A stretch of DNA of 47,227 bases. It comes from an uncultured bacterium (GTDB lineage: Bacteria > Bacillota_I > Bacilli_A > RFN20 > CAG-826). Positions 29,235 to 47,227 of the stretch are shown one piece after another. The stretch is taken from the NCBI GenBank assembly GCA_949288485.1, contig CASEKC010000009.1, positions 1 to 47,227 on the forward strand, given 5' to 3'. A model generated the notes under the pieces. The model worked only from the letters and a program-made list of their open reading frames with translations, searched no databases and was not told the origin of the DNA. Made by a program: the position numbers and the translations under genes. How positions within the stretch are numbered: position 1 is the first letter of the stretch; each line of letters starts with the position of its first letter.

Positions 29235-29250
29235 TGATATAATGTAGATA
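29235..29250 (+). promoter_or_regulatory. Extended -10 promoter giving a leaderless transcript
   Basis: TGATATAAT (extended -10 TGnTATAAT, 29235-29243) ends 6 bp before the ATG at 29250. Transcription would begin at or next to the start codon and there is no ribosome site, so the mRNA is probably leaderless. Confidence 0.55.
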
Positions 29251-31937
29251 TGAATTATGACAATCTTTCAAAAGAAACTTTAATTCGTGAAATAGAATCT
29301 TTAAAAGAAGAAATCAAAAGACTTCAATCTTTATTGACATTAAATAATATAAATTTTACTAAAGAAGAAATTCCGGAGTTTAATTTTTCTTTAGAAGAAA
29401 AAATCGCATTATATAGTGAGTATTTCAAAGGAAATCCAAACTATGTAGCTGAACAATTTGAAAAAAACGGCAATAAATTTTATTCTTTGGTTTGTGAAAA
29501 TAAATTTTCTTCCTTATGTAATATTAAAGAAGTTAAATGTAAAGATTGTAGAAAGCAGAAATTTGTAAAATACGATGACAATATCGTTTTAAATCAATTG
29601 AAAGGAACAAAACAATACGGCATATATCCTTTAATAAATGATAAATGTAATTTTATTGTTGTTGATTTTGATGAAAGTAATTTCAAAGAAACCGCAATAG
29701 CATTTAAAAATAACTCTTTAAAATATAATGTTGATGTCGCTATTGAATTATCTCAATCAGGAAATGGAGCTCATGCTTGGATTTTCTTTTCTGAAGAAAT
29801 AGATGCAAAAATTGCTAGAAAACTTTGTTTTTATTTATTAGAAGATTGTTTCGAAGAAGGGAAATTGGATAATTTAAATTCTTTTGATCGTTTAATTCCA
29901 TCCCAAGATTATTCACCATTAAATGGATTTGGAAATTTAATAGCCCTTCCATTAAGTGGAAAGAAAAGCAAAAATAACAATACAACTATTTTTGTAAGAA
30001 ATGATTTCACTCCTTTTCAATTAAATGAACAATTTTCTTATTTAAAAACAATAAATAAATTAAATAAAAAAGAAGTAGAATCAATTATTAAAAATTTTGA
30101 TGAAAATAAAAATAAACTATTAAATTTAACGAATTTAAAAATAAATAACACTGATTTTAACAACGATTTTACAATTTATTTAAATTCAATGATATCTGTT
30201 TATAAAAGTCAAATTTCTAAAAAGGCATTAAATTTCCTCAAAAAAATTGGGTCAATTAATAATCACGAATATTTTGAAAGACAAGCTAAAAGATTATCTA
30301 CCTATAATATATCAAGATTTTTAAGACTTTATCATGAAGATGATGTAATTATTAAATTACCAATTGGTGTTTTAAATTATCTTTTAGAAGTTTTTGAAAA
30401 AAAGAAAATTAAATATCGATTAAAAGATTCAAGAACTAAAGGCGAATCAATTGATATAACATTTAATGGCGAACTTCATGAAAAACAAAAAGAAGCTCTC
30501 GATAAATTATTGAATAATGAAAGAGGAATTCTTTTAGCTAATACTGCTTTTGGAAAAACAGTAGTTGCTATTGCTTTAATCTGTGCTTTAAAAATAAATA
30601 CAGCTATTTTAGTTGATAAAATAAATCTAATTGAACAATGGAAACAAAAAATTAAAGAATTTACTATATTTGATGAAAATAATAAGATTGGTGAATATAC
30701 TTCAACAAAAAGAAAACTTAGTAATTTTATAGATATTATTTCTGTAAAATCTTTAAATTCTCCTGATATTGATGAAAATATTTTTGAAAATTATGGATTA
30801 GTAATAATTGATGAAGTGCATCATTTAGCAGCACAAAGTTTTGAAAATGCAATTAAAAAATTTAATGCAAAAAGAATATATGGTTTAACCGCAACATTAA
30901 AAAGAAGTGATGGTAATGAAGGAATTATTAAAAAATGTATAGGTGATGTAATCTTTGAACATTTTGATGAAAAAAGTGATTTTTTACGTATTTTACATCC
31001 AATAATAACTGGTTTTAATGCAGATTTAAATAGTTTAACTATTAATGGAAGAGTTGATTATACATCCTTATTAAATGAAATGATTAAAGATGAAAAACGA
31101 AATGAACTTATTTTAAATCGTATTAGTGAAAATATAACAAAAAAGAATATTTTAGTACTTACTGAAAGAATTGAGCATGCTCAATTCTTATATGAAAAGA
31201 TAAAAGAAAAATATAAGGATGAATATATTTATAATATAAATGGATCTTCTTCAAAAAAAGAATTAAAGATTTTTCAAGAAGAAATAAATTCATTATCACT
31301 AAATAAAAAAATAACTATTATTTCAACCGGTAAATTTATAGGTGAAGGATTTGATTTAGACAGATTAGAAGTTTTATATATAACTATGCCTATTAAATGG
31401 GAAGGAACTTTACAACAATATACTGGCCGTTTACATCGTCAAAAAGAAGGAAAAGAAAAAGTAGAAGTTTATGATTTTGTTGATTTAAATATTCCTATTT
31501 TTGAAAATATGTTTAATATTCGTTTAAAAAAATATAAAAAATTACTTTATAAAAACGAAGATAATATTAATGAAGAATTTATTTTTGATAAGGAAACTTA
31601 TTTTAAAAAATTAAAAGAAGATTTATCTAATGCAAATAGCAATATAAGATTTATTATAGGTTTAGGATATTCAAAAATTATTAATCATTTAATTAGTTTT
31701 ACTTCTAAAAATGCAAAAGTGTATTTATATACTAATTATGAATATGAGATAAATAGAGAAGCAAAAGTATTAAATTTAGATAAAAAATCATTAATAAATG
31801 CTATTATTATCGATGATTCAATTATTTATATAGGATCTTTAAATCCATTTGTAAGTAATAATAGTGAAGATGATTCGATTATATGTGTTTATGATAAGTT
31901 ACTTATTCAAAAGTATATTAATTTTATAAAGATTTAA
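29250..31937 (+). CDS. TOTE-type primase / SF2 helicase / PLD-like fusion protein
   Basis: 895 aa in four parts. (1) A coiled coil at 5-28. (2) An archaeo-eukaryotic-primase-like domain: Cys knuckle C82, C90, C97, C100, metal motif VVDFDE (D139, D141), SGNGAHAWIFF (170-180) and FGNLIALPLSG (227-236). (3) An SF2 helicase: NTAFGKT Walker A (431-437), DEVH (521-524), LTATLKRSD (546-554), STGKFIGEGFD and QYTGRLHR arginine finger (723-730). (4) A PLD-like C-terminal fold with IIIDDSIIYIGSLNPF, where the usual HKD His is absent. This order is that of TOTE conflict-system primase-helicases, thought to act in mobile-element or phage conflict. Flanked on both sides by 33-bp repeat arrays. No accessory gene is co-transcribed. 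Confidence 0.8.
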   Translation: MNYDNLSKETLIREIESLKEEIKRLQSLLTLNNINFTKEEIPEFNFSLEEKIALYSEYFKGNPNYVAEQFEKNGNKFYSLVCENKFSSLCNIKEVKCKDCRKQKFVKYDDNIVLNQLKGTKQYGIYPLINDKCNFIVVDFDESNFKETAIAFKNNSLKYNVDVAIELSQSGNGAHAWIFFSEEIDAKIARKLCFYLLEDCFEEGKLDNLNSFDRLIPSQDYSPLNGFGNLIALPLSGKKSKNNNTTIFVRNDFTPFQLNEQFSYLKTINKLNKKEVESIIKNFDENKNKLLNLTNLKINNTDFNNDFTIYLNSMISVYKSQISKKALNFLKKIGSINNHEYFERQAKRLSTYNISRFLRLYHEDDVIIKLPIGVLNYLLEVFEKKKIKYRLKDSRTKGESIDITFNGELHEKQKEALDKLLNNERGILLANTAFGKTVVAIALICALKINTAILVDKINLIEQWKQKIKEFTIFDENNKIGEYTSTKRKLSNFIDIISVKSLNSPDIDENIFENYGLVIIDEVHHLAAQSFENAIKKFNAKRIYGLTATLKRSDGNEGIIKKCIGDVIFEHFDEKSDFLRILHPIITGFNADLNSLTINGRVDYTSLLNEMIKDEKRNELILNRISENITKKNILVLTERIEHAQFLYEKIKEKYKDEYIYNINGSSSKKELKIFQEEINSLSLNKKITIISTGKFIGEGFDLDRLEVLYITMPIKWEGTLQQYTGRLHRQKEGKEKVEVYDFVDLNIPIFENMFNIRLKKYKKLLYKNEDNINEEFIFDKETYFKKLKEDLSNANSNIRFIIGLGYSKIINHLISFTSKNAKVYLYTNYEYEINREAKVLNLDKKSLINAIIIDDSIIYIGSLNPFVSNNSEDDSIICVYDKLLIQKYINFIKI

Positions 31938-32137: not shown

Positions 32138-33496
32138 ATGTATTTCAAAAGAAAAATTGATAAAGAATTAGAAAATTGGTTAAAAGTAAATGGTCACTCA
32201 CCAGCTTTAATTACAGGTGTTAGACAATGTGGGAAAACGAGTAGTATAAAACGTTTTGCTAATGATAATTTTAAAAATGTTGTTTACATAAATTTTTGGG
32301 AAACACCGAAAATGAAGCAAGCATTCGAAGAATCATTAAATGTTGATGACATAATTTCTACACTTACTTATCTTAATAGTAATTTTAAATTTATTCCTTA
32401 TGAAACGGTAATTATTTTTGATGAAATACAAGATTGTGCTAAAGCCCGTTTATCTTTAAAAAGCTTTAAAGAAGATAAAAGATTTGAAGTGATTGCTAGT
32501 GGATCTTATGTTGGTTTAAATATTGAAAATAAAGGAAAAGCAAATACGCCAAAACCTAATGGATCTGAAGATGTTTTTACAATGAAAACTTTAGATTTTG
32601 AAGAATTTCTTTGGACAATTGGATATGATGAAGATAAAATAAATTTTTTAGTCGATTGTATAAAAGAGAAAAAGAAAATCCCTAATTTAATACATAAAAC
32701 GATGAAAGAATTGTACAAAACCTATATATCTATTGGGGGATATCCAGAAGTTATATCTAGTTTTTTAAATAATAATAAAAACTATAATATAGCCTTTAAA
32801 AAGATTAGTAGTTTAATTTTTGATATAAAAGGCGATCCTTTAAAAAGAACTGATGAAAATGGCAAGCCTCTTTATACTCAATATGAAATAGCAAGAATAC
32901 AAAACTCCTTTGATTTAATACCTAGTTTTTTATTAAAAGATAATAAAAAATATGTTGTTTCAAAAATCGATGGAGGGAATGGATTACAAAAACAAGATGC
33001 AATAAATTATCTTGTTAATGCAAATTTAGTTTTTAAAGTTAACAATTTAACTAATCTTTCTCTTCCTTTAAAAAGTAGTGCTATCTTAAATGATTTTAAA
33101 TTATTTTATTCTGATATTGGTCTTTTTATAGGAAATAGTGGGTTTGATACTATCGAGGGATTAATGAATGATACTTTAGGAATGAATAAAGGTTATTTAT
33201 ATGAAGCAATAGTTGCAGATAATCTTTTTAAAGCTAATATTCCTTTATATTATTTTAAAAAGAGTAGTGGTTTAGAAGTTGATTTTATTATCTCTTATCA
33301 AGGTTATCCAACATTAATCGAAGTAAAAGCATATAATGGAAATGTTAAATCTTCTAAAACTATATTAAATAATCCAAATCATTATGGAAAAGCAAGATTA
33401 ATTAAATTTGGTGATTATAATATTGGTTTTAGTGATAATTTTGTTACATTACCTTATTATTTAATTTTTGCATTAGATAGAGTTTCGTTATTTTAA
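32138..33496 (+). CDS. AAA_14 / DUF4143 ATPase
   Basis: 452 aa. Walker A GVRQCGKT near residue 30 and Walker B VIIFDEIQD near 95 form an archaeal-type AAA ATPase domain; the C-terminal DUF4143 part ends in a PD-(D/E)xK-like core (LEVDFIISYQGYPTLIEVKA). This family is widespread, often multicopy and variable between strains, with unproven roles in defence or mobile-element biology. AAGG lies 9 nt before the ATG. Preceded by a 33-bp repeat array and followed by an inverted repeat. Confidence 0.85.
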   Translation: MYFKRKIDKELENWLKVNGHSPALITGVRQCGKTSSIKRFANDNFKNVVYINFWETPKMKQAFEESLNVDDIISTLTYLNSNFKFIPYETVIIFDEIQDCAKARLSLKSFKEDKRFEVIASGSYVGLNIENKGKANTPKPNGSEDVFTMKTLDFEEFLWTIGYDEDKINFLVDCIKEKKKIPNLIHKTMKELYKTYISIGGYPEVISSFLNNNKNYNIAFKKISSLIFDIKGDPLKRTDENGKPLYTQYEIARIQNSFDLIPSFLLKDNKKYVVSKIDGGNGLQKQDAINYLVNANLVFKVNNLTNLSLPLKSSAILNDFKLFYSDIGLFIGNSGFDTIEGLMNDTLGMNKGYLYEAIVADNLFKANIPLYYFKKSSGLEVDFIISYQGYPTLIEVKAYNGNVKSSKTILNNPNHYGKARLIKFGDYNIGFSDNFVTLPYYLIFALDRVSLF

Positions 33497-34260: not shown

Positions 34261-35877
34261 ATGAAACGTTTATTAACTATATTATCTGGAGTTTTATTAA
34301 TAATTTCTTCTTTATCATCATGTGTATCTAATCCAGAAAATGACGAAAAAATTGATGAAGTAATTGATAAAGAAGAAGAGTAAAAAGAAATCTTTACCGT
34401 TAAGCGGTATAGTGAGAACGGTGAGATTATTGAAGTTGACGATGTTGAAGAAGGTGATATACCTGAATTTAATCAAGAAAATCCAACTAAAGATCCTGAC
34501 AAGGAACATAAATACATATTTAATGGTTGGGAACCAGAAATAGGTCCAATTACAAAAAATACTGACTATTATCCTAAATTTGATAAAAAGAATAATGACG
34601 AAGTTTTTACTGTTAAATTTTTAAATTATGATGGTACTGTGATACAAGAATATAATGAAGTTTTAAAAAATCAATTTGTTTTTAATTATGATATTGTTCC
34701 TACAAGACCAAGCGATGCTCAATATAAATATGTATTTAGAGAATGGTCTCCCGAATTACATCGAATTAAAGAAGATACTACATATATTGCTACATACGAT
34801 AAAATCCCTTTATACGTAAATATAGAAGATTCGATGGTTCCTAGTGAAGATCATGGTAAACTTTTTATTTTTGGTGAAGCTCATGGTGATAAAGGTATTT
34901 TAGAAGAAGAATTAAAAGTATGGGGAAACTATTATGAAAATTATGGTTTTAGAGATTTATTTGTTGAACAAGATCAAGTGTGGGCTACTTTATTTAATAT
35001 TTACATGCAAACAGATGGTGACGATTATTCAAAACATATTTTTAGATGGTATGAAGATGGAGCAGGATTTTCAATCTATTATTTTAATTTTTTTAAAACG
35101 ATTAAAGAAAAATATCCTGAAACCATTTTTCATGGTGTAAATACAGGTGACCATATTCGTTGGAATGTAAATATTGATTATTATCTTCAATCATTGATTA
35201 AAGAAGGGTTTTTAGATGAAAATATGTTTCAGCATACAAAAGATCAAATTTTAAATACTGAAAAACAAGTAGAGGTAATATCAAGTTCAATAGCAAAATC
35301 AGATGCGATTAGAGATGCAGGAATGGCACAAAGTATCATGGAAGAATGGCTAAGAATTGGAAAGAAAAATGTAATGTGTATTTTGGGGAATGGTCATACA
35401 GGAAAAAATATACACATCGATGAAGAACATAAAGACTGGTACAACGCAGGGACAATAATTGCTAGAAATTTTGGAACAAGTTTATATCATGATTCTGATC
35501 ATTGTTTGCACTTCGAAACTAATGAACGTGAAGTTCCACCTGATGAACTTTTTCAATATAATTATCCTGATTACAACGAAATATATGTTGGAACATCAGA
35601 AAATTTACCTTATGGAATAAATGATTATAGTATGTATGATTACGTTAAATTTTATCTTTTAGAAGATGCTTATGAAGATATGAAAAATACTCCATATGAT
35701 GGTTTAACTATGTATTCCTATAATATTTTACCTTTTAAGCCTGAATTTAATAGAATTTATAAAGCCGTCTATTATACTAACGATAATATTCCAGGTTTAA
35801 CTGAATATTATCGTTCAAGTCCTTATTATGTAAATAGAATGAGTGATGGAAGATTTTTATTAGGTTTATCCTTTTAA
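34261..35877 (+). pseudogene. Lipoprotein with repeat domains and EreA/ChaN-like domain, split by a stop codon
   Basis: ATG 34261 opens a lipoprotein signal peptide with lipobox (MKRLLTILSGVLLIISSLSS, then Cys21). After 40 codons an in-frame TAA (34381-34383) interrupts, and the same frame then runs open to 35877. Joined, it is 538 aa: signal, acidic linker, two Listeria-Bacteroides-repeat/Flg_new-like modules (YIFNGWEPEI ... YVFREWSPEL), and a domain beginning KLFIFGEAHGDKGILEEEL with later LGNGHTGKN, which resembles the erythromycin-esterase/ChaN/TIKI group (GExH). The stop is one base from GAA. Either the gene is inactivated or the C-terminal part starts at ATG 34639 without export. The long intact remainder suggests a recent change. 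Confidence 0.75.
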
Positions 35878-35990: not shown

Positions 35991-38900
35991 TTATTTCCTA
36001 TTAAAAACTAAACTTTTGATAAGTTCATAATCTTTAACTAGTTGATTAGGTATTGTATAGAGTTTTAAATTTATTTTTTTAGCGATTAATTCTTTTTCTT
36101 CTTTTCTTTTTTCTACTTCATAATTATTAGCAGGATCATTATTACGTATTTCTATTGCAATTATAGGAACTTCTTTACCTTTTTCTATTTTAAATATTAC
36201 TGAATCAAATGAAATATTTTCATTTGATTCAGTAATATCATAAGATGTTAAAGAAGATAATTTAATATCTCTTTTAACTTTATAATCTCCATAGATTGAT
36301 ACAAAATATTTCATTGTTTCATAAAATTCCATTTCACTAGATTTAGTTAAAGCATATCCAATAGCTTCACTATATTTTTCGTTAGGAATTATTTTTGTTT
36401 TACCGTTTTTAGCACAATAATCAACTAACATTGAAATATCATCATCTTTAGATGGTGAAAGTTTATCAATTGATTCTTTATTAGCACAAACAATTAATTT
36501 CTTTTTAGCTCTTGTGACTGCAACATTTACTAATTCTGAATTTTCTTTAATCCAGTTATATGTTCCTAAACTTGTTTTAGGAGAAATGGAAGTAGAAAGA
36601 ATAATTACATCATTTTCTGCTCCTTGCATTGTATGAATTGAACCACACTTAACTTCATTATCTAATTTTTCTTCTTTTAACATTGAATTAATTAAATGTA
36701 CTTGATTAACAAAAGGAGTTAAGACAGTTACGTTTTTATATTTATTTTCTTTAATTAATGAAACAATTCCTTTTGCTTCATTAATTGAAGCGTTTTTAGG
36801 AGTAAAATTAGAGTTATTTTTATCTTCTTTAACATCATAAAATTCAATTTCTCCATTAATTAAATCATCAGTTATTTTTATTTTATTATTATAAAAACGT
36901 TTATTAGAGAAATTGATGATATTTTTACCACAGCGATAATGGTAACTTAAAAAGATTGATTTAGAAATATTATCATGATTTTGCATAACTGAATAAATTG
37001 AATTAGTCGTGTAATCATAACTTGAATCAATATTAAACTCATCCATTAATCTTCTATTAGTTGCTTTATCTAAAACAATAACTGGTTGAAGTTGAGATAT
37101 ATCACCTAAAAGTAGAAGTGAATTAACTCTTGCAATAGGTAAAAGAGAATAAGCAATTGAACATTGAGCAGCTTCATCAATTATTCCTAAATCAAATTTT
37201 CTTTTTCCATCGCCTAGTTTATAAGAAGAAATATTTGTTGTAAAAATTATTGGGAAAGCTTCTAAAAGAAGTTTTAAATTATCATTGTTAGAAAGCCGAT
37301 CATTAAATTCACTAACGATAGTTTTATCATCTTCTTTAGAACAAATTTCAATTAAACGAGCATAACGAGGTTTCTTTAAATTTAAAATATATTTTAAAGA
37401 TTTAAAATAAAGATATTGTAAAAACTTATTATCTTTTTTAACCGGTTCAATATATGATTGAACCGTTTCATTTGTAATAGAAGGAATAGTATTATATTCT
37501 TCTTCTAACTTTTTACGATAAAGATTACAAGAATTACGAGTAGGTAAATCTTCGATATTTGATTTTTTTAAGAAATTATTAATTGAGTTAATAGAAATAT
37601 TTAATTCTTTTTTTCTTTCATAATTAGATAATAAATTAACTAATTCTTTTACTTTATGAGTATAGCCTTCAAAAAGATTATTTAGCTTTTTATCATTAAC
37701 ATCTTTATCAAATTTCATGTTATATAAACAAAGTATTTTTTTAGCAGCTTTAAGCATTTCTTCTTTATTTCCTAATCTTAAAAATGGGAAAGGAATATCT
37801 TTATCAAAATATTTAAAATTAAATTTTTCAACAACTCCATCAACTGGTTTATTATTAGAAGAAGACATTAAAACAGTCTTTTCATTAAAAAAAGCACTTA
37901 AAATAACATTTAAGATTGTTTGAGTTTTGCCAGTTCCAGGAGGACCTTGAACATAAGTAACAGGATAGCGAAGTGAATTATATAAAGCACTTATTTGATC
38001 AATATTAGGTTTTTCATCATAAAGAACTAAAAAAGGTTCTTTTCTTGAATGGAAATAAGTTTGTCGAGAGATTTCTCCAAAAAAAGCTTTTAAAGGATAA
38101 GGAGCTATACCTTCGTTAAATTCTCTTTTTATTTCGTTATAAGTAGTAGTTAAATCGATTTTAAAATCTCTTTCTAAAACCATTATTTCATTTTTAGTAT
38201 TAAAAAGTTGATCTTCCTTTTTTAATCCTTCTCTTAATATCGAGATTCCTTTTTCTTTATCTTTATTAAAAAGGTCAATAAAGTCTTCTATTTTCATTTC
38301 GATAAATGAAAATAGTGATACTTTATTGTCATTGTTATTAGTAAGATTACTATTATTACTATTGTTATTATTAGAAAAAGTAGTACCTACATGATATTCT
38401 TCATAACTAGTAGGAAAAGCTTCTAATAAAAAAGTATTATTAAATTTTAATTCTTCTCCAATAATTAAAGTTTTATCTGTTGGATCAAAAATTAAATCAT
38501 AATAACATACAACAAACTTTTTATTATTTCGTTCTATTAAGACATTAGATATAACAAAATCAAACGTTGATTTTGTTTTTAATGATGTTTTACCATATTT
38601 TTCAATTATCTTTTTAGTTATTATTTTTTCTTGTTCTTCATTTAAAGTAATATATGTTTCTTTTGTTAAACTATCTATATCAATTCCTGGAAGAATAAAA
38701 GATTCTTTTTGAAAAGGATCACTATCTTTTTTAACACATTCATTATAATAATCTAATATATCATTATCATTTTTAGTGTATTCTAAATATTCTAATTCTT
38801 TATTATTTTTATTTTCTAACTTATTAACTAATGTATCTGGTGTTTTAAAATGTGTAAAATCTAATAAAGAAGCATCAATAATATTATCAAAATATATTGA

Positions 38901-39107
38901 TGCTTCTTTAATAGTATTTAAAGATTTTTCACTATTAAAGATATCACATTTAATCATTCTTTTATTTTCTTTAGAATAATAAAAATCTCTTATACCTATC
39001 CAATAAAAGGTATAGTTAATATCACTATCTTTATCTTTTTTATATTTAATATATAGCCATTTGTTATTCTTAATCGAATCACAAATGGCTTTAGTGATTT
39101 TATTCAT
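35991..39107 (-). CDS. SF1 (UPF1/Dna2-like) helicase with C-terminal DUF2726-like nuclease domain
   Basis: 1038 aa. An unrecognised N-terminal part, weakly like a WYL fold at 15-45, and a poly-Asn linker (about 246-261) precede an SF1B helicase: YVQGPPGTGKT (about 385-395), IIDEAAQ (642-648), LLGDISQLQP, YHYR (723-726), TMQGAEND (826-833) and VAVTRAKKK (862-870). The last 130 residues carry a restriction-endonuclease-like region (FDSVIFKIEKGKEVPIIAIE) resembling DUF2726/Vsr-type folds. A helicase fused to a nuclease is typical of defence and DNA-processing proteins. It is divergent from the methyltransferase/specificity gene with 187 bp between them, so the two may be co-regulated. Confidence 0.82.
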   Translation of the reverse strand: MNKITKAICDSIKNNKWLYIKYKKDKDSDINYTFYWIGIRDFYYSKENKRMIKCDIFNSEKSLNTIKEASIYFDNIIDASLLDFTHFKTPDTLVNKLENKNNKELEYLEYTKNDNDILDYYNECVKKDSDPFQKESFILPGIDIDSLTKETYITLNEEQEKIITKKIIEKYGKTSLKTKSTFDFVISNVLIERNNKKFVVCYYDLIFDPTDKTLIIGEELKFNNTFLLEAFPTSYEEYHVGTTFSNNNNSNNSNLTNNNDNKVSLFSFIEMKIEDFIDLFNKDKEKGISILREGLKKEDQLFNTKNEIMVLERDFKIDLTTTYNEIKREFNEGIAPYPLKAFFGEISRQTYFHSRKEPFLVLYDEKPNIDQISALYNSLRYPVTYVQGPPGTGKTQTILNVILSAFFNEKTVLMSSSNNKPVDGVVEKFNFKYFDKDIPFPFLRLGNKEEMLKAAKKILCLYNMKFDKDVNDKKLNNLFEGYTHKVKELVNLLSNYERKKELNISINSINNFLKKSNIEDLPTRNSCNLYRKKLEEEYNTIPSITNETVQSYIEPVKKDNKFLQYLYFKSLKYILNLKKPRYARLIEICSKEDDKTIVSEFNDRLSNNDNLKLLLEAFPIIFTTNISSYKLGDGKRKFDLGIIDEAAQCSIAYSLLPIARVNSLLLLGDISQLQPVIVLDKATNRRLMDEFNIDSSYDYTTNSIYSVMQNHDNISKSIFLSYHYRCGKNIINFSNKRFYNNKIKITDDLINGEIEFYDVKEDKNNSNFTPKNASINEAKGIVSLIKENKYKNVTVLTPFVNQVHLINSMLKEEKLDNEVKCGSIHTMQGAENDVIILSTSISPKTSLGTYNWIKENSELVNVAVTRAKKKLIVCANKESIDKLSPSKDDDISMLVDYCAKNGKTKIIPNEKYSEAIGYALTKSSEMEFYETMKYFVSIYGDYKVKRDIKLSSLTSYDITESNENISFDSVIFKIEKGKEVPIIAIEIRNNDPANNYEVEKRKEEKELIAKKINLKLYTIPNQLVKDYELIKSLVFNRK

Positions 39108-39237
39108 ATATCAATATAATATATCAATTAAAATAAAAATATCAGAGAAAGATGAATAAATTAGTCAATATATGGTCAATTTATAGAGGAGATGATACTA
39201 AATTTATAAAATTTAAGTTTTTAAAAACACAAAATAC

Positions 39238-39266
39238 TTGACATTATGTTTTCACAAACTTAAAAT
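39238..39266 (+). promoter_or_regulatory. Strong promoter of the methyltransferase-specificity gene
   Basis: TTGACA (39238-39243), 17 bp, TAAAAT (39261-39266), followed by ribosome site GAGAGG (39283-39288) and ATG 39295. It is a near-consensus sigma-A promoter, one of the clearest in the window. Confidence 0.75.
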
Positions 39267-39294
39267 TATAAATATAAAATACGAGAGGTTATTT

Positions 39295-40971
39295 ATGGAC
39301 AAAAAAAATAGTTTAGATACATCTATTTTTCTTTCAAAAAAATTGGGAGATGATTATTTAGGAATGTGGTTATGTCTTGTTTTTGAATTCCTTTATACAA
39401 AGAAAACGATTACTTTTTCTAAAGAGGAGAAAAAATTAAAAACTGAAATATTAGCTTATGTTGAAGAAAATATTGAGAAAATGGGTCGTGATTCTTTTAA
39501 TAATTTATTAAATGTTTTAAATGATGAAAAACCAGAAGATGTCATAGAAATATTAGAATATGTTTATACATTGTTTCCAAAATATGCCTCAAAAAATAGC
39601 TATGATTTTTCACCTTTAGATTTAGAGACATTAGCTTTAAAATTACTTAATTTAGAAGATGGCGATAAGTTAATAGATGTAGGTTCAGGCAACGGTAATT
39701 TTTTATTAAAAGCATATCAATATTTAAATAAAGTCCATTTGCAAAGTTTGATTGGAATTGAAATAAATAAAGTACTTTACCTACAATCATGCATATTATT
39801 TAAAATTTTAAATGCAAATTTATCTATAGAATTAATAAATAAGGATTTATTTGCTTTAGATGAGTTACCTAAATTTAATAAGGCTTTTTGTTTCCCTCCA
39901 TTTGGTTATAAACCTTTATTTGGAAATGTATATAAATCTATGAGATATGACGATTTTGAATTTAATAGACGTAATTCTGGAGAATGGATTTTTATTGATA
40001 GAATTGTTTCTAAAAATAATAAAAAATTTAACAGAGCAGCAATTGTAACTAGTGGGGCAAGTTTATTTAATGCGCAAGATATTAAATATCGAAATAAAAT
40101 CATTAAAGACGGTTTTATTGAAGGAATTATTGAGCTTCCACAAAAGTTGTTGCCAAATTCAAAAATTAAATTATTTTTGGTAGTGCTAAGCAAAGGGAAT
40201 AAAGCAATCAAATTTTTAGATGCTTCCAACATGATAAAAACGAGTAAAAATAAAAATAATCAGCTCGATATTGATAAAATTGTAGATGCATATGAAACAC
40301 CTAGCGAAATTTTAACAATAGAAGAGGCTCTAGAATTAACAAATTTACAGCCAAGTAAACTTCTTAATGAATCCACATCTTTTACCGGAGTAAGGATAGG
40401 TGATTTTTGTGAAGTGTTTAATGGTTGCCAATATACTAAACGACATTTTGAAGAAATGAATTCAAGTAAAAAAACAGGTTATAAAATTATTACTTCAAGT
40501 GATATAGCAGATTATTATATAGATTGGAATGCGTTAAAATCTATAAATATAAATAAAAAAACTTTTGATAAGTTTTCGTTGCACGAGAATGACATTGTTG
40601 TTACATCTAAATCGACAAAAACAAAAGTTGGTGTTGTCGACAAGAAGCCTGACGAAAAAATAATAGTTACTGGAGGCATGATTATTATTAGGCCTGACAT
40701 AAACAAAGTGAATCCTGTTTATTTAAAAATGATTCTTGATTCAGATTATGGCGCTTATTGTTTTAGTTTACATCAAAAAGGAGATGTAATTAAAAGTATC
40801 TCTGCTAAAGATATAGCAGAAATACAAATTCCGTTAATTCCAAAAGAAGATCAAGATTTAATCGCTAATAATTATTTGGTAAAAATAACAACTCTTCTTG
40901 CTCTAAAAAAACAAGTTGAAGTATTAGAAGGAAGTCTAAAAAATCTTTTTATGGAATCGATGGAGGCTTAA
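39295..40971 (+). CDS. Fused N6-adenine DNA methyltransferase and specificity (HsdM-HsdS-like) protein
   Basis: 558 aa from ATG 39295, supported by GAGAGG 6 nt upstream. A helical N terminus leads to a methyltransferase with SAM motif I LIDVGSGNGNF (126-136) and a catalytic motif IV reading CFPPFGYKP (199-207), where the usual Asn/Asp of NPPF/DPPY is Phe. A single target-recognition domain follows (VRIGDFCEVFNGCQYTKRHF at about 366 to the C-terminal coiled coil). Modification-specificity fusions with one TRD occur in type IIG and type I-like systems, but no nuclease is fused here. With an altered motif IV, activity is uncertain; it might be a DNA-recognition subunit. It is followed 5 bp later by a 175-aa gene. 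Confidence 0.8.
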   Translation: MDKKNSLDTSIFLSKKLGDDYLGMWLCLVFEFLYTKKTITFSKEEKKLKTEILAYVEENIEKMGRDSFNNLLNVLNDEKPEDVIEILEYVYTLFPKYASKNSYDFSPLDLETLALKLLNLEDGDKLIDVGSGNGNFLLKAYQYLNKVHLQSLIGIEINKVLYLQSCILFKILNANLSIELINKDLFALDELPKFNKAFCFPPFGYKPLFGNVYKSMRYDDFEFNRRNSGEWIFIDRIVSKNNKKFNRAAIVTSGASLFNAQDIKYRNKIIKDGFIEGIIELPQKLLPNSKIKLFLVVLSKGNKAIKFLDASNMIKTSKNKNNQLDIDKIVDAYETPSEILTIEEALELTNLQPSKLLNESTSFTGVRIGDFCEVFNGCQYTKRHFEEMNSSKKTGYKIITSSDIADYYIDWNALKSININKKTFDKFSLHENDIVVTSKSTKTKVGVVDKKPDEKIIVTGGMIIIRPDINKVNPVYLKMILDSDYGAYCFSLHQKGDVIKSISAKDIAEIQIPLIPKEDQDLIANNYLVKITTLLALKKQVEVLEGSLKNLFMESMEA

Positions 40972-40976
40972 AAAAT

Positions 40977-41504
40977 ATGCGTTTATCAGCACAAGAAATT
41001 TCTGAAATTAAATCAAAAGTTTTATCTAAAATAATGTTTGAATTAGATCTTGCTATTACTGATGATAATATAGAAGAATTTTTAAATAAACATAATATTA
41101 TTTTTGAAGCTAATCCTATGCCTGTTCAGCCAAGAACAATGAAAATTCTAGTCCTTGGAGCTTTATCTGGAAATGTTAGTAATTTCAAATTAGCAGCAAA
41201 AAAACTTGGTATTGGTGACAATCATATTAAATTCGAATGTGATTATAAAAGCTTAAAAAGATACGATGTTTCAAGACTTGAATATTCAAATGAATATTCT
41301 GATATTATATTTGGGCCGAATCCTCATAAGCAAATCGGTATTGGAGATTATGCAAGTGCTTTAAGTATGATGAAAAGTGAACCTGAAAAATATCCGAGAA
41401 TTATAGAATCAATTGCTAATAATTCTTTAAAAATAACTATTTCATCTTTTAAAGAAGCGATTTTAAATACAAGGTATTATGAGACTATTCAAAAAAATTA
41501 TTAA
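40977..41504 (+). CDS. 175-aa protein of unknown family, partner of the methyltransferase fusion
   Basis: GGAGG at 40962-40966 and a 5-bp gap tie it to the preceding gene. A helical N terminus is followed by a Rossmann-like core: MKILVLGALSGNVSNFKLAA (a strand with a glycine loop), IKFECDYKSL, and YSDIIFGPNPHKQIGIGD, a conserved-looking GPxPHK loop. That suggests a small nucleotide-binding or sensor domain. I do not recognise the family. Its tight coupling to the methyltransferase fusion implies joint function. Confidence 0.7.
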   Translation: MRLSAQEISEIKSKVLSKIMFELDLAITDDNIEEFLNKHNIIFEANPMPVQPRTMKILVLGALSGNVSNFKLAAKKLGIGDNHIKFECDYKSLKRYDVSRLEYSNEYSDIIFGPNPHKQIGIGDYASALSMMKSEPEKYPRIIESIANNSLKITISSFKEAILNTRYYETIQKNY

Positions 41505-41804: not shown

Positions 41805-44800
41805 ATGCCTAAAAACTTTAATGAAGCAACAAGAGTTCAAATGCCTGCAATGGTTCATCTTACAAGATTGGGTTATAAGTATTATGGAAAGATTTCAGAA
41901 TTTGATGCTAATATTAAGTATGACCCAGACACAAATATTTTAATAGATGTTTTTAAACGTCAATTTTTAAAATTAAATCCAGGTAGCGGTGATATATTCG
42001 AGGAAACACTTAAAAACATAAAACAAGAACTTGATAATAACGATATTGGTAAAAGTTTTTACAAAAGATTAATAAGTGTTTCCCCTATACGTTTATTAGA
42101 TTTCGAAAATCCTAACAATAATGAATTTCATTTTACGGCTGAATTTACTTGCAAAAGAGATGATGAGGAATTTAGGCCTGATATTACGCTGTTTATAAAT
42201 GGGTTGCCCTTGTGTTTTATCGAGGTAAAAAAACCAAATAATCCTGATGGTATGATTGCAGAAAGTAATAGAATGACAAATCAACGTTTTCCTAATCGTA
42301 AATTTAGAAGATTCATTAATATTACACAATTAATGATTTTTTCTAACAATATGGAATATGATACGCTTGGAGGCATTGTTCCTGTACAAGGAGCTTTTTA
42401 TTGCACAGGTTCCAAGAATAAAGCCTACTTTAACTGTTTTAGAGAAGAAAATAGATTAAATGAAGCGATACCTCCTTTTAATAAAGATTTTCCATATCTG
42501 AAAATAGACCCTCAAGTTGAAAAGAAAATTTTAACTGATTTCAATTGTCAGGTTATTCATACATCGCCTGAATATCAGATAAACCTTGATATAAACACTC
42601 CTACAAATAGAATTTTAACATCAATGTGTAGCAAAGAAAGGCTCCTTTTTTTAATAAAATATGGAATAGCTTTTGTTAAAGACGAAAGGGAGATTGATGG
42701 TGTGATGCAATCAATTGATGAGAAACAGATAATGCGTTATCAACAACTCTTTGCCGCTTTAACTATCCGTGAAAAAATAGAACAAGGAATTATGTCAGGT
42801 CTACTATGGCATACACAAGGCAGTGGTAAAACAGCCTTATCATATTACTTAAATTTTGTTTTAACTGATTATTTCGCTAATAAAAATAAAGTTGCAAAGT
42901 TTTATTTTATTGTTGATCGATTAGATTTACTTGTTCAAGCTTCACAAGAATTTGAGGCTAGAGGACTTATTGTAAAAACAGCTAATACTAGAGAGGAATT
43001 GATGTCTCAATTTAGAACCAACCAATCTCTCGAGGGAAGCAAAGGAAGTAATGAAGTTGTTGTAGTTAATATACAAAGATTTGCAGAGGATAAGGAAAAG
43101 TTTGCAATCCCACCTTATGCAACAAACCTTCAACGAATTTTTATAATTGACGAAGCGCACAGAGGTTATAAGCCTGAAGGTAGTTTTCTTGGTAATTTGT
43201 TTGAAGCTGATAAAAATTCTTTGAAAATAGCTTTAACTGGTACACCTTTACTTAAGGCTGAAAGAGCGTCTTGGAAAATTTTTGGAAATTATTATCATAC
43301 ATATTATTATGATAAATCTATAGAAGATGGTTATACTTTAAAGGTTATAAGAGAACCTATAGAAACTTCATATAAGGAAAATTTATCTCAAATTTACGAA
43401 CGTTTAGAAACTCTTGTTTTAAAAAAAGATGTCAAAAAATCAGATATAATTGAACATGACACATATGTAAAAGAACTCCTTCGTTATATAATTTCTGATT
43501 TGCAAAAATTTAGAATAATTCAAGGAGATGACACTCTTGGTGGAATGATAATTGCTGAAACCAGCGAACAAGCAAGAAAACTTTATGCTTATTTTGACGA
43601 AATACAAAGAGAATTAAACAAAAATAATAATTATAAAAATCTAAGAGCTGGGCTTATTCTATATGATAGCGATGATAAAGAAATTAGGGATCATATTGTT
43701 AAAGATTTTAAAAAGAATTTTAAAATTGATATTCTCATTGTTTTTAATATGCTTCTTACCGGATTTGATGCTCCACGATTAAAAAGACTTTATTTTGGAA
43801 GAAAACTTAAAGACCACAATCTTCTCCAAGCTATTACTAGAGTAAATAGACCTTACAAAAATATGAAATATGGTTACGTTATTGATTTTGCCGATATAAA
43901 GGAAGATTTTGAAGAAACTAATAATGCATATTTAAAGGAATTAAGTAGATTTAACGATCCTGATGAAGTCGGAGAAGGCAATGCTTCTAATACATTTACT
44001 CAAATTCTAGAAGACAAGGACGAATTATTAAAGAAAATAAAAGAAGCCGAAGGAATTCTTTTTAATTTTTCAACTAATAATGCAGAACAATTTAGCACAG
44101 AAATTTCTCAAATTGATGATAAGAAAAGACTTTTGGAGATTAGAGGAGCTTTAACAACAATTAAAGATTGCTTTAATATCGGTAGGGCATTTGGCGATGA
44201 AGAATTAAAAAGCAAATTAAAAAAACTGGAGATTAAAAATCTTACATATCTTATTACAGAGGTTCAACATCATATTGATAATATTAATCAAAAGTTAGTG
44301 TTAATGTCTTCGAATACAACTAAACAAATTATTAATGAAGCTATGGCAGGAATAACATTTAAATTTACTCCTCAAGCCGAAGAAGAACTAAGAATAGCTG
44401 ATGGTGGTGAACAATTGAAAAAGATGTGGAATTTAGCTATAAAAGAATTTTCTTGCAATATGGATCAAGACGATCCGGCTTATATTTCATTAAGAGAAGC
44501 ATTTCTTGCTCGTTTTAGGGAGCATGGTTTTATTGTCGAATCTCAAGAAGATTATGATAAAACTTTGCTTGATTTGAAGAGCGTAGTTAATAAATTGGAT
44601 GAAATGAAAAAAAGAAATACAGTTTTAGCCGATAAATATAACGGTGATGTAAAATTCGTAAGAACACATAAAAGAATTATCGAAAAAAATATATCGAGAC
44701 AGCTTGAAAACAAAAAACCGATTATTTCACCTTTTGAAGTAGATGTACTAGAAACATTAAATGAAATTAAGAAAACAATCGATCAAAAAGTTTACGACAG

Positions 44801-44972
44801 AAACGATATATTGAAGAAAGACGCTTATTTTGCACAAACAGTTATGCAATTAGTGGATAAAGGTTTAAGTGATTTAAATTTAAATAATACAAGAGAGGAT
44901 AGACTCTTTATTCAACAATGTATTAGCAATGAATATCTAAGCCAATATAGAGAAACCTTTTTGAACGAATAG
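41805..44972 (+). CDS. hsdR: Type I restriction enzyme, motor/nuclease subunit HsdR
   Basis: 1055 aa, full length. The N-terminal nuclease domain has D126 and E140-V-K142 (FRPDITLF ... LCFIEVKKP). The translocase motor shows LLWHTQGSGKT (334-344), IFIIDEAHRG (445-454), LTGTPLL, LLTGFDAPRLKRLYFGRKL and QAITRVNRPY. The C-terminal helical part is present. It cuts unmodified DNA after ATP-driven translocation, together with HsdM and HsdS. The strong AGGAG site sets the start. Gene order R-M-S, with hsdM 10 bp downstream. Confidence 0.96.
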   Translation: MPKNFNEATRVQMPAMVHLTRLGYKYYGKISEFDANIKYDPDTNILIDVFKRQFLKLNPGSGDIFEETLKNIKQELDNNDIGKSFYKRLISVSPIRLLDFENPNNNEFHFTAEFTCKRDDEEFRPDITLFINGLPLCFIEVKKPNNPDGMIAESNRMTNQRFPNRKFRRFINITQLMIFSNNMEYDTLGGIVPVQGAFYCTGSKNKAYFNCFREENRLNEAIPPFNKDFPYLKIDPQVEKKILTDFNCQVIHTSPEYQINLDINTPTNRILTSMCSKERLLFLIKYGIAFVKDEREIDGVMQSIDEKQIMRYQQLFAALTIREKIEQGIMSGLLWHTQGSGKTALSYYLNFVLTDYFANKNKVAKFYFIVDRLDLLVQASQEFEARGLIVKTANTREELMSQFRTNQSLEGSKGSNEVVVVNIQRFAEDKEKFAIPPYATNLQRIFIIDEAHRGYKPEGSFLGNLFEADKNSLKIALTGTPLLKAERASWKIFGNYYHTYYYDKSIEDGYTLKVIREPIETSYKENLSQIYERLETLVLKKDVKKSDIIEHDTYVKELLRYIISDLQKFRIIQGDDTLGGMIIAETSEQARKLYAYFDEIQRELNKNNNYKNLRAGLILYDSDDKEIRDHIVKDFKKNFKIDILIVFNMLLTGFDAPRLKRLYFGRKLKDHNLLQAITRVNRPYKNMKYGYVIDFADIKEDFEETNNAYLKELSRFNDPDEVGEGNASNTFTQILEDKDELLKKIKEAEGILFNFSTNNAEQFSTEISQIDDKKRLLEIRGALTTIKDCFNIGRAFGDEELKSKLKKLEIKNLTYLITEVQHHIDNINQKLVLMSSNTTKQIINEAMAGITFKFTPQAEEELRIADGGEQLKKMWNLAIKEFSCNMDQDDPAYISLREAFLARFREHGFIVESQEDYDKTLLDLKSVVNKLDEMKKRNTVLADKYNGDVKFVRTHKRIIEKNISRQLENKKPIISPFEVDVLETLNEIKKTIDQKVYDRNDILKKDAYFAQTVMQLVDKGLSDLNLNNTREDRLFIQQCISNEYLSQYRETFLNE

Positions 44973-44982
44973 GAGTATAAAT

Positions 44983-46614
44983 ATGGATATAAAACAAAAA
45001 ACAATACAATTAATTGATTCCTTGAAGTCTACCTGTCAAACTTATGGAATGGGGAATGATGGGAATGAATATAAAATTATCACACAAGTTTTTCTTTATA
45101 AGTTTCTTAATGATAAATTCGGCTTCGAAATAAAAAAGATATCTAATCGTTTAGCTAGTTCTAAAAATTGGGAAACTGAATATGCATCAATGTCAAATGC
45201 TGAAAGATTTGATATTTTTGATAAACTATCACCAGACGTGCCTAGATTGTATCCAGAACACTTAATTAGTAATTTATGGAATCAACAAGCAAAAGGCGAT
45301 TTTGACTTAATATTTGACTCTACTATGATTGATATTGCAGATAAAAATATTGACATCTTTTCTACACAAACATCACAAAATACGAAAATTCCACTCTTTG
45401 AAAAACTTACTGTTTTTGTTACCGATGAAGCTGCAAGACCAAATTTTGCAAGAGCATTAGTAGACAAGCTAGTAAATTTCTCTTTTGAAGAAACTTTTGG
45501 TCAGCATTACGATTTTTTTGCTGCAATTTTCGAATACTTAATAAAGGATTATAACACTGCTGGAGGTGGAAAATATGCTGAATATTATACACCTCATTCT
45601 ATTGCAACAATTATGGCTAAATTATTGGTTGGAAATGACACAGAATTTCATAATATAGAAATTTACGATCCTGCTGCAGGAACAGGGACACTTTTGATGG
45701 CTCTAGCTCATCAAGTTGGAGAGGATAAATGTACAATTTACTCTCAAGACATTTCTCAAAGAAGTAATAAAATGTTGAAATTGAATTTAATACTCAATAA
45801 TTTAGTTTCTTCTTTGGATCACGCTATTCAAGGTGATACACTTGTTGATCCTTATCATAAAAGCGATGATGGTAAAGCTTTAAGACAGTTTGATTTTGTT
45901 GTCTCTAATCCACCTTTTAATACTGATTTTTCTGATACTAGAGAAGATATAGCGAAAATGCCTGTTAGATTTTGGGCTGGGGTTCCAAAAGTTCCTGCAA
46001 AGAAAAAAAACGGTATGTCAATTTATACTTGCTTTATTCAACATGTTATTAACTCTATGAAACCGAAAAAAGGTAAAGGAGCAATTGTTGTTCCTTCAGG
46101 TTTTTTAACCGCTAAAAGCGGAGTAGAAAATGTTGTATTAAAAAGAATAATTGATGCTAAGATTGTTTACGGCGTAATTAGCATGCCATCTAATGTATTT
46201 GCTAATACTGGAACTAATGTTTCTGTTTTGTTTTTTGACAACGCTAGAGACCATGAAGATGTTATATTAATAGACGCCTCTAAGATGGGTGAAGAATATA
46301 AGGATAGCAATGGATTAAAAAAGAAACGCTTAAAAGAGAGTGAAATAACTTTAATTATCGATACTTTTTTAAATAAAAAAATAATTGACGACTTTTCTGT
46401 AATAGTTGAATACTCAAAAATAAAGCAGAAATACTCATTAGCAGCTGGGCAATATTTTGATGTTAAAATAGAATATATACCGCTTACTGAAGATGAATTC
46501 AATAATAAAATAAGTGTATATAAAAAAGAACTAAACATGTTATTTGAAGAAGGCAGAGAACTTGATAAACAAATTATAGAAGGGTTAGAAAAATTAGAAT
46601 ATGATAAAAATTAA
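44983..46614 (+). CDS. hsdM: Type I restriction enzyme, methyltransferase subunit HsdM
   Basis: 543 aa. An N-terminal HsdM_N helical domain, then SAM motif I IYDPAAGTGTLLMAL (229-235 core) and catalytic NPPF (309-312) in FVVSNPPFNTD. It methylates adenine in the sequence chosen by HsdS. AGGAG at 44971-44975 overlaps the hsdR stop. All motifs are intact, unlike the divergent motif IV in the 39295-40971 protein. Its last 14 bp overlap hsdS. Confidence 0.96.
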   Translation: MDIKQKTIQLIDSLKSTCQTYGMGNDGNEYKIITQVFLYKFLNDKFGFEIKKISNRLASSKNWETEYASMSNAERFDIFDKLSPDVPRLYPEHLISNLWNQQAKGDFDLIFDSTMIDIADKNIDIFSTQTSQNTKIPLFEKLTVFVTDEAARPNFARALVDKLVNFSFEETFGQHYDFFAAIFEYLIKDYNTAGGGKYAEYYTPHSIATIMAKLLVGNDTEFHNIEIYDPAAGTGTLLMALAHQVGEDKCTIYSQDISQRSNKMLKLNLILNNLVSSLDHAIQGDTLVDPYHKSDDGKALRQFDFVVSNPPFNTDFSDTREDIAKMPVRFWAGVPKVPAKKKNGMSIYTCFIQHVINSMKPKKGKGAIVVPSGFLTAKSGVENVVLKRIIDAKIVYGVISMPSNVFANTGTNVSVLFFDNARDHEDVILIDASKMGEEYKDSNGLKKKRLKESEITLIIDTFLNKKIIDDFSVIVEYSKIKQKYSLAAGQYFDVKIEYIPLTEDEFNNKISVYKKELNMLFEEGRELDKQIIEGLEKLEYDKN

Positions 46615-47227
46615 ATTGGGAGATGTATTGGAAATAAAAAGAGGTTGTAGTTTATTTGGAAAATATTATAATGACTCAGGAAAGTATATTCGCCTAACAC
46701 TAGGCAATTTCAATTATCCAGATAATGGTTTTAAAAAAAACAAATCAAAAGAGAATATATTTTATAATGGTCCTATAAAAAGTGAATATTTACTTAAAAA
46801 AGGCGATATTATTACACCATTAACTGAACAAGTTCGAGGTTTGCTCGGAAATACTGCAACTATTCCAGAATCAAATACATATATTCAATCGGGTGATATT
46901 GGATTAATTGTACCATCTAAATGTTTATATGAACGTTATGCATATTATTTAGTTTCTTCACCTATAGTAAAGAAACAATTAGAAGCAGGATCTCAGCAAA
47001 CTAAAATTAGACATACTTCGCCTAGTTCTATAAAAAATTGTATTGCTTTTATACCTGACTTTAATAATCAAATTAAAATTTCAAAATTATTAGATAACAT
47101 TAATAAAAAAATTTCAATTAATACCCAAATAAACGATAATTTATCTCAACTTATCGATATTATCTTTAGACATTTCTTTATGCAAAAAATAAAAATGCAT
47201 GTTGGAAATTTCGAATCAATTCTAAAT
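46601..47227 (+). CDS. hsdS: Type I restriction specificity subunit HsdS (partial, runs off window)
   Basis: 209 codons to the window edge, still open. ATG 46601 overlaps the hsdM stop by 14 bp (coupled translation). The first target-recognition domain starts IKLGDVLEIKRGCSLFG and ends with the conserved helix NQIKISKLLDNINKKISI; the start of the second half (HVGNFESIL) is seen. It chooses the DNA sequence for the R-M complex. It can be compared with the truncated hsdS at 20748-21275. Confidence 0.9.
   Translation, partial: MIKIKLGDVLEIKRGCSLFGKYYNDSGKYIRLTLGNFNYPDNGFKKNKSKENIFYNGPIKSEYLLKKGDIITPLTEQVRGLLGNTATIPESNTYIQSGDIGLIVPSKCLYERYAYYLVSSPIVKKQLEAGSQQTKIRHTSPSSIKNCIAFIPDFNNQIKISKLLDNINKKISINTQINDNLSQLIDIIFRHFFMQKIKMHVGNFESILN

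What the first reader, a model, noticed from the sequence alone, without database searches (positions are those of the whole stretch)
35991..41504. Candidate undescribed system: SF1 helicase-nuclease, methyltransferase/TRD fusion and a 175-aa unknown protein
Sequence shows a methyltransferase fused to one target-recognition domain, 5 bp from a 175-aa gene with a GPxPHK loop, both behind a near-consensus promoter, and divergent from a 1038-aa SF1 helicase ending in a DUF2726-like nuclease region. Known logic of restriction needs recognition/modification plus a motor and a nuclease; here these functions sit on separate, adjacent proteins in an arrangement I cannot match to type I, II, III, BREX, DISARM or Druantia. 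They also border a normal type I operon, as in defence islands. Grouping the divergent helicase with the others is inference.
Basis: partly seen in the sequence, partly recalled or inferred. Interest (0 to 1): 0.72.

Follow-up and report, generated by a model that had tools for sequence, protein, structure and literature searches.

The report
Dead methyltransferase switch for restriction operons
Two of the three flagged genes head a type I restriction operon; the first encodes a methyltransferase that has lost its catalytic motif and, by its sequence pattern, probably now works as a switch that binds paired sites in the operon's own promoter, while the third gene (the helicase) is an unrelated neighbour.

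Summary
The genes are real, but the three-gene 'system' is not. The helicase (35991-39107) is a solitary gene present in 46 of 279 genomes of the order and is not linked to the other two. The methyltransferase/TRD fusion (F; true start ATG 39295) and the 175-aa protein (Y) are a conserved, co-evolving pair that heads type I restriction operons: F lies before hsd genes in 17 of 23 loci and Y directly follows F in 18. F has lost the catalytic motif NPP[FYWH] in 23 of 23 copies, while all 17 HsdM proteins of the same operons keep it. F promoters carry two copies of an interrupted palindrome (core GT-N8-AC) around the -35/-10 region: 15 of 19 F promoters against 2 of 96 control promoters, and 3 of 3 new F-Y loci tested after the prediction was written down. 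The palindrome co-varies with F's TRD, not with its N-terminus or (after TRD correction) its MTase domain. Near-identical pairs ride on unrelated type I families. Best reading: F is a catalytically dead, single-TRD methyltransferase that dimerises and autoregulates the operon, a TRD-based controller unlike HTH controllers. Binding has not been measured. Y's role is unknown; probably a partner of F.

The parts
39215..39230 (.). Operator copy 1, AAGTTTTTAAAAACAC (interrupted palindrome, GT-N8-AC core), 7 bp upstream of the -35 box
   Evidence: Rank 5 of 47,212 positions with a profile built from relatives without the window
39238..39243 (+). -35 box TTGACA (the TTG is the first start codon of the open frame, but not the gene start)
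   Evidence: sequence
39246..39261 (.). Operator copy 2, ATGTTTTCACAAACTT, filling the spacer and touching the -10 box
   Evidence: Rank 1 of 47,212 positions; the only pair of such sites within 100 bp in the window, 0 of 30 shuffled windows have one
39261..39266 (+). -10 box TAAAAT, 17-bp spacer
39295..40971 (+). Gene F, 558 aa: helical N-terminus, degenerate N6-adenine MTase domain, one TRD with C-terminal helix; proposed autoregulator
   Evidence: Pfam/PADLOC; homologues; AlphaFold model pLDDT 82; Foldseek hits CamA, HsdM, M.BseCI, an MTase-Ocr complex
39676..39696 (+). Motif I remnant DVGSGNG in F (SAM-binding motif largely kept)
   Evidence: Alignments
39892..39903 (+). Degenerate catalytic motif IV in F: FPPF instead of NPPF
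   Evidence: 0 of 23 F keep [NDS]PP[FYWH] at motif IV; 17 of 17 operon HsdM do
40381..40930 (+). Approximate TRD of F (about residues 363-545)
   Evidence: Type I specificity models; TRD identity co-varies with operator sequence
40977..41504 (+). Gene Y, 175 aa: helical N-terminus plus flavodoxin-like alpha/beta domain with GPxPH[KS] loop; proposed partner of F
   Evidence: Directly downstream of F in 18 of 23 F loci; F-Y distances r=0.89, Y-HsdM r=-0.08; model pLDDT 78
41805..44972 (+). hsdR of the type I operon
   Evidence: HSDR_N, SWI2_SNF2, T1R_D3-like
44983..46614 (+). hsdM with intact NPPF
   Evidence: motif
46601..47227 (+). hsdS, cut by the end of the contig
   Evidence: Sequence; contig ends at 47227

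Best explanation
F and Y form a controller module at the head of type I restriction-modification operons. F descends from a gamma-type N6-adenine methyltransferase fused to a single target-recognition domain, but has lost the catalytic motif, so it reads DNA without methylating it. Two F molecules, each contributing one TRD, bind an interrupted palindrome with a GT-N8-AC core, as homodimeric half-HsdS and gamma-MTases do. Two such operators bracket or overlap the -35/-10 region of the operon's promoter, so bound F most likely represses (possibly activates at low dose, then represses) its own operon and sets the timing or level of R, M and S. Y is encoded directly behind F, co-evolves with F and most likely binds F to modulate it. 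Shown at sequence level: operon structure, loss of motif IV, twin operators, operator-TRD covariation, swapping between type I families. Inferred: DNA binding by F, dimerisation, sign of regulation, role of Y.
For: (1) Operon: F precedes hsd genes in 17 of 23 loci, Y directly follows F in 18 with gaps of -23 to +5 nt. (2) Loss of [NDS]PP[FYWH] in 23/23 F against 17/17 intact HsdM in the same operons. (3) Twin palindromes: 15/19 F promoters at <=2/300 shuffles against 2/96 control promoters at <=1/150, Fisher 2e-13. (4) Prediction written first, then met in 3/3 new F-Y loci at 0/300. (5) Window: the two sites rank 1 and 5 of 47,212 with a profile built without it. (6) Operators are present in L074 and L104, which have F but no Y, so F rather than Y is the likely reader. 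(7) Operator distance follows TRD distance (partial r 0.49, p 0.0002 given MTase) but not MTase given TRD (r 0.16, p 0.13) nor the N-terminus (r -0.03). (8) The module is 86-94% identical in L076 and L078 while their HsdM/HsdR are 27% identical; in L094/L095 F's TRD is 96% identical but HsdS 34%. (9) Homodimeric TRDs read interrupted palindromes (PMC3874165).
Against: No binding, expression or methylation data. The window's own pair alone is borderline (16/300 shuffles); it is convincing only with its relatives' profile. Three in-sample loci show no such pair (L070, L079, L105), and L097 has one good copy only. The sample includes near-identical copies (11 of 15 significant after collapsing them). 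Covariation tests do not correct for shared ancestry. In Salimicrobium (L129) the palindromes have a different form (AGTAAT-N3-ATTACT, read by eye) and stand before another first gene. AT-rich promoters make chance palindromes common. Some F (L098 DPPA, L100 SPPL) keep part of motif IV, so residual activity is not excluded.
Confidence: 0.77

Rival explanations
1. F is an active or conditionally active methyltransferase (alone or paired with the operon's HsdM) that gives the operon a second, symmetric specificity; the palindromes in the promoter are simply its methylation sites, and regulation is by methylation.
For: Motif I and the E-I-N segment are largely kept; sites contain adenines; CfrBI-type regulation by promoter methylation is known for type II systems (PMC12707154).
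Against: The catalytic motif is lost in 23/23 copies, replaced by different residues, while HsdM in the same operons keeps it in 17/17.
Confidence: 0.1
2. F and Y are an effector-like accessory of the type I enzyme (for example a decoy or adaptor that changes HsdR recruitment, or a sensor of anti-restriction proteins), and the promoter palindromes are read by another regulator.
For: The module rides on type I operons of several families; the top Foldseek match of F is an MTase bound to the DNA mimic Ocr.
Against: Operator sequence follows F's TRD across loci; loci without Y keep the operators; an outside regulator would not be expected to change specificity together with F.
Confidence: 0.1
3. 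One reading: helicase, fusion and Y form one undescribed restriction system.
For: They are neighbours in this window; the helicase is divergent from F with a shared intergenic region.
Against: Helicase relatives in 46/279 genomes against 4/279 for F; helicase contexts unrelated to RM; no helicase in the other F-Y loci (the only hit, L099, has a different Y-domain protein and no F).
Confidence: 0.02

Closest known systems
C (controller) proteins of type II RM systems, and the C-like gene upstream of the M. gallisepticum hsd operon (PMC12707154)
   Same: First gene of an RM operon, paired operators in its own promoter, proposed autoregulation
   Different: C proteins are small HTH proteins; F is a 558-aa degenerate MTase-TRD fusion without a detectable HTH
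RptR (PMC12255303)
   Same: Repressor encoded in front of type I RM operons with repeated operators in the promoter
   Different: Small helical protein of Gammaproteobacteria binding the 6-bp palindrome TAGCTA; no MTase or TRD
Regulatory MTases M.SsoII, M.Ecl18kI, M.EcoRII (PMC12707154)
   Same: A methyltransferase polypeptide that represses RM genes
   Different: Those are active MTases that regulate through a fused N-terminal HTH; F appears inactive, and its N-terminus does not track the operator
Homodimeric gamma-MTases (M.XmnI, M.DrdI) and truncated HsdS homodimers (EcoR124I delta50, EcoDXXI, NgoAV) (PMC3874165)
   Same: One TRD per chain, interrupted-palindrome recognition; single-chain MTase-TRD layout for the gamma-MTases
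   Different: Active modification enzymes or their specificity subunits, not known as promoter regulators
WYL-domain regulators of defence systems (BrxR type; PMC9122601)
   Same: Regulators placed with phage-defence operons
   Different: WYL/winged-helix proteins (paper title and general knowledge), unrelated in domain make-up
Mokosh MkoC (PADLOC), for the helicase only
   Same: Best PADLOC model match to the helicase, E 8.5e-46
   Different: Two partial stretches only; contexts are solitary; membership not established

Membership tests
Type I modification methyltransferase (HsdM) | Catalytic motif IV [NDS]PP[FYWH] | tested here: not met
   0 of 23 F, against 17 of 17 HsdM in the same operons
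Type I modification methyltransferase (HsdM) | N6_Mtase fold with HsdM_N domain | tested here: inconclusive
   N6_Mtase found in F and Foldseek matches HsdM; no HsdM_N hit in F, though the operon HsdM tested have it
RM controller (works like a C protein) | First gene of the RM operon with repeated operators in its own promoter | tested here: met
RM controller (works like a C protein) | Binds the operators and changes transcription | not testable with these tools
   Needs EMSA and reporter assays
C protein family | Small HTH protein | tested here: not met
   F and Y have no HTH family hit in Pfam or NCBIfam
Homodimeric single-TRD MTase / half-HsdS | One TRD per chain with interrupted-palindrome recognition | tested here: inconclusive
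   One TRD seen; interrupted palindromes that co-vary with the TRD; dimerisation and binding not tested
Regulatory MTase (SsoII type) | Active MTase with N-terminal HTH that reads the operator | tested here: not met
   No HTH hit, motif IV lost, N-terminus does not follow operator (r -0.03)
RptR | TAGCTA repeats and small helical repressor | tested here: not met
   F promoters carry GT-N8-AC palindromes; proteins differ in size and domains
Named multi-gene defence systems in PADLOC (MADS and others) | Family-level match of the parts | tested here: not met
   Y has no PADLOC hit; F matches only generic specificity models and parts of mad2/mad5, far below the NCBI cut-off for MAD5
DUF2325 (considered for Y) | Profile similarity | tested here: inconclusive
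   hhalign of the Y profile with a single DUF2325 protein gives 2% probability over 24 columns

The most novel reading that the evidence does not exclude
F is a bait: because it is built like the DNA-binding core of a type I methyltransferase, phage or plasmid DNA mimics such as Ocr or ArdA would pull it off its operators and so switch the restriction operon (and Y, a possible effector) on when anti-restriction is sensed. This would be a transcription factor made from a restriction enzyme that detects inhibitors of that enzyme.
Probability: 0.13. Interest if true: 0.92.

Novelty: new variant of a known kind. Interest (0 to 1): 0.78.

Why it matters
[quoted passage not shown] This module would be a controller in Bacillota that reads DNA with a restriction TRD instead of a helix-turn-helix, and it moves between unrelated type I enzymes. 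Because TRD and operator vary together across natural loci, it also gives a ready set of TRD-target pairs readable from sequence alone. Two F-type proteins in public records are annotated as 'N-6 DNA methylase' (WP_014566283, WP_008591562), which would be misleading for this family.

Tried and rejected
Y searched in plasmids and phages: no hit. First genome-contig scan with Y alone: no relative. PF10087 in relatives: none; DUF2325 link to Y by profile: not supported. Fold search with Y: only common flavodoxin-like folds, best Z 8.5 to a designed protein, no clear family. Weak hits of the Y profile in ~560-aa frames (L119-L121, L123, L124) look like formate-tetrahydrofolate ligase genes (my reading of the sequences), discarded. 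A first, unweighted palindrome-pair test was uninformative in AT-rich DNA and was replaced by an information-weighted one. F competing with the operon's HsdS for the same site was rejected: no matching TRDs, and F's TRD stays 96% identical where HsdS differs. Literature searches found no description of such a controller in the held library; absence there is not proof of novelty.

Full report
What is in the window. The three genes exist. The helicase (35991-39107, minus) matches AAA_11/AAA_12. The fusion, here F, starts at ATG 39295 behind GAGAGG; the TTG start of the open frame at 39238 is the first base of a TTGACA -35 box. F has an N6_Mtase domain and one type I-like TRD. The 175-aa gene, here Y (40977-41504), has no significant family match (Pfam, NCBIfam, PADLOC, PHROGs). 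Downstream lie hsdR and hsdM, and an hsdS cut by the contig end.

The helicase is separable. In 279 genomes of the order, helicase relatives occur in 46, F in 4 and Y-domain proteins in 8. Inspected helicases stand alone among unrelated genes. None of the 24 other loci checked (those with F or Y) carries the helicase except L099, which has a different Y-domain protein and no F.

F and Y head type I operons. Searches gave 23 F loci: the window, L070-L079, L094-L098, L100, L104, L105 and L129-L132. Y follows F directly in 18 of them (in L075 it breaks off after GPMPH, with transposase-like genes downstream), with gaps of -23 to +5 nt in the 16 measured. Every free-standing full-length Y found is next to F. 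In 17 of 23 loci type I genes follow on the same strand; L070 and L072 end at the contig edge just after Y. F occurs without Y in L074, L079, L104, L105 and L129. The type I partners are diverse: HsdM proteins of different loci are often only 24-33% identical and the R subunits include EcoR124-like and EcoEI-like ones.

F has lost catalysis. At motif IV none of 23 F has [NDS]PP[FYWH]; examples are FPPF (window), FIPL, NMPM, EYPW, HFPF, DPPA and SPPL. All 17 HsdM proteins in the same operons keep NPPF/NPPY. Motif I (DxGSGxG) and the E-I-N segment are mostly kept, so SAM binding may survive (inference). The model of F (pLDDT 82) resembles CamA, HsdM, M.BseCI and an MTase in complex with Ocr.

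The module is not tied to one enzyme. Across 13 loci, F and Y distances correlate (r 0.89, p 0.0002), while F-HsdM (r -0.11) and Y-HsdM (r -0.08) do not. In L076 and L078 the pair is 86% (F) and 94% (Y) identical though HsdM and HsdR are 27% identical. In L094 and L095 F's TRD is 96% identical while HsdS is 34%, so F's specificity is not coupled to the enzyme's.

The promoters carry twin operators. Aligned upstream regions showed two copies of an interrupted palindrome around the -35/-10 region, for example ACGTTTTAACAAACTT/ACGTTTGTGTAAACTT (L094), TGGTTTAAGTAAACCA/TGGTATAGTTAAACCA (L075), TGGTTATTAAAAACCA twice (L104), AGGTTTTATAAAACTT twice (L074). An information-weighted test found such pairs at <=2 of 300 dinucleotide shuffles in 15 of 19 F promoters, against 2 of 96 other promoters in the same loci at <=1 of 150; Fisher p 2e-13. 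After collapsing near-identical copies this is 11 of 15. The prediction for new loci was written down before they were read; all three new F-Y loci met it at 0 of 300 (AAGTTTATATAAACTT/AAGTTAATATAAACTT; AGGATATAAATATCCT/AGGATATAGATATCCT; TGGTTATAAATAACCA/TGGTTATCGATAACCA). A fourth, L129, lacks them at F but has AGTAATTAAATTACT and AGTAATCGAATTACT around a promoter before its first gene, a DUF2325 gene (read by eye). In the window the pair alone is borderline (16 of 300), but a profile built from relatives without the window ranks the two sites 1st and 5th of 47,212 and finds no other pair.

Who reads the operators. L074 and L104 have operators and F but no Y, pointing to F. The operators share a GT-N8-AC core with clade-specific flanks; in one class the core reads GGATAT. 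Operator distance follows TRD distance (r 0.64; partial r 0.49 given MTase, p 0.0002; jackknife 0.41-0.59), but not MTase given TRD (r 0.16, p 0.13) nor the N-terminus (r -0.03). TRD identity is 48% within and 31% between operator classes. Single-TRD proteins that dimerise are known to read interrupted palindromes (PMC3874165). These tests do not correct for shared ancestry.

Mechanism. Most likely an F dimer binds each operator; one lies just upstream of the -35 box and the other in the spacer, at the -10 box or just downstream, so RNA polymerase would be excluded: autorepression of F, Y and the type I genes. Activation at low dose, as with C proteins, cannot be excluded. Y has a helical N-terminus and a flavodoxin-like domain with a conserved GP-x-x-H loop; its co-evolution with F suggests a bound partner, its function is open.

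Known relatives and novelty. RM controllers exist: C proteins, an HTH controller in front of a mycoplasma hsd operon, regulatory MTases with an HTH (PMC12707154) and RptR in front of type I operons (PMC12255303). As described there, none reads DNA with a TRD or is a dead MTase. I therefore file it as a new variant of RM controllers by proposed function, not as a member of any of these families.

Noticed in passing
L011:3729-7728, L102:6413-8711, L114:1474-3353: The Y domain also forms the C-terminus of ~340-360-aa proteins encoded directly or nearly next to a ~400-430-aa UvrD/SLFN-like SF1 helicase gene in three genomes; a second candidate system of its own.
   Followed up: partly
L129:5166-5489: In a Salimicrobium plasmid the F-type operon begins with a DUF2325 gene, and twin AGTAAT-N3-ATTACT palindromes stand before it.
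   Followed up: partly
window 29250-31937: Archaeo-eukaryotic primase of the TOTE conflict type fused to a helicase (AEP-TOTE, ResIII), near the type I operon: possible defence island.
   Followed up: no
window 35991-39107: Solitary SF1 helicase whose family (46 of 279 genomes) has variable contexts; most relatives match only from residue ~260 on, so the N-terminus is variable.
   Followed up: partly
window 32138-33496: AAA_14/DUF4143 ATPase gene.
   Followed up: no
window 34639-35877: 412-aa protein with a weak, sub-threshold match to ChaN/erythromycin-esterase families.
   Followed up: no
L079:4800-7128: A lone F without Y or type I genes follows a fragment similar to the LlaJI restriction endonuclease.
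   Followed up: no
L133 (G807): The Y match in this genome has two stops and nearby F-like and hsd fragments look decayed.
   Followed up: no
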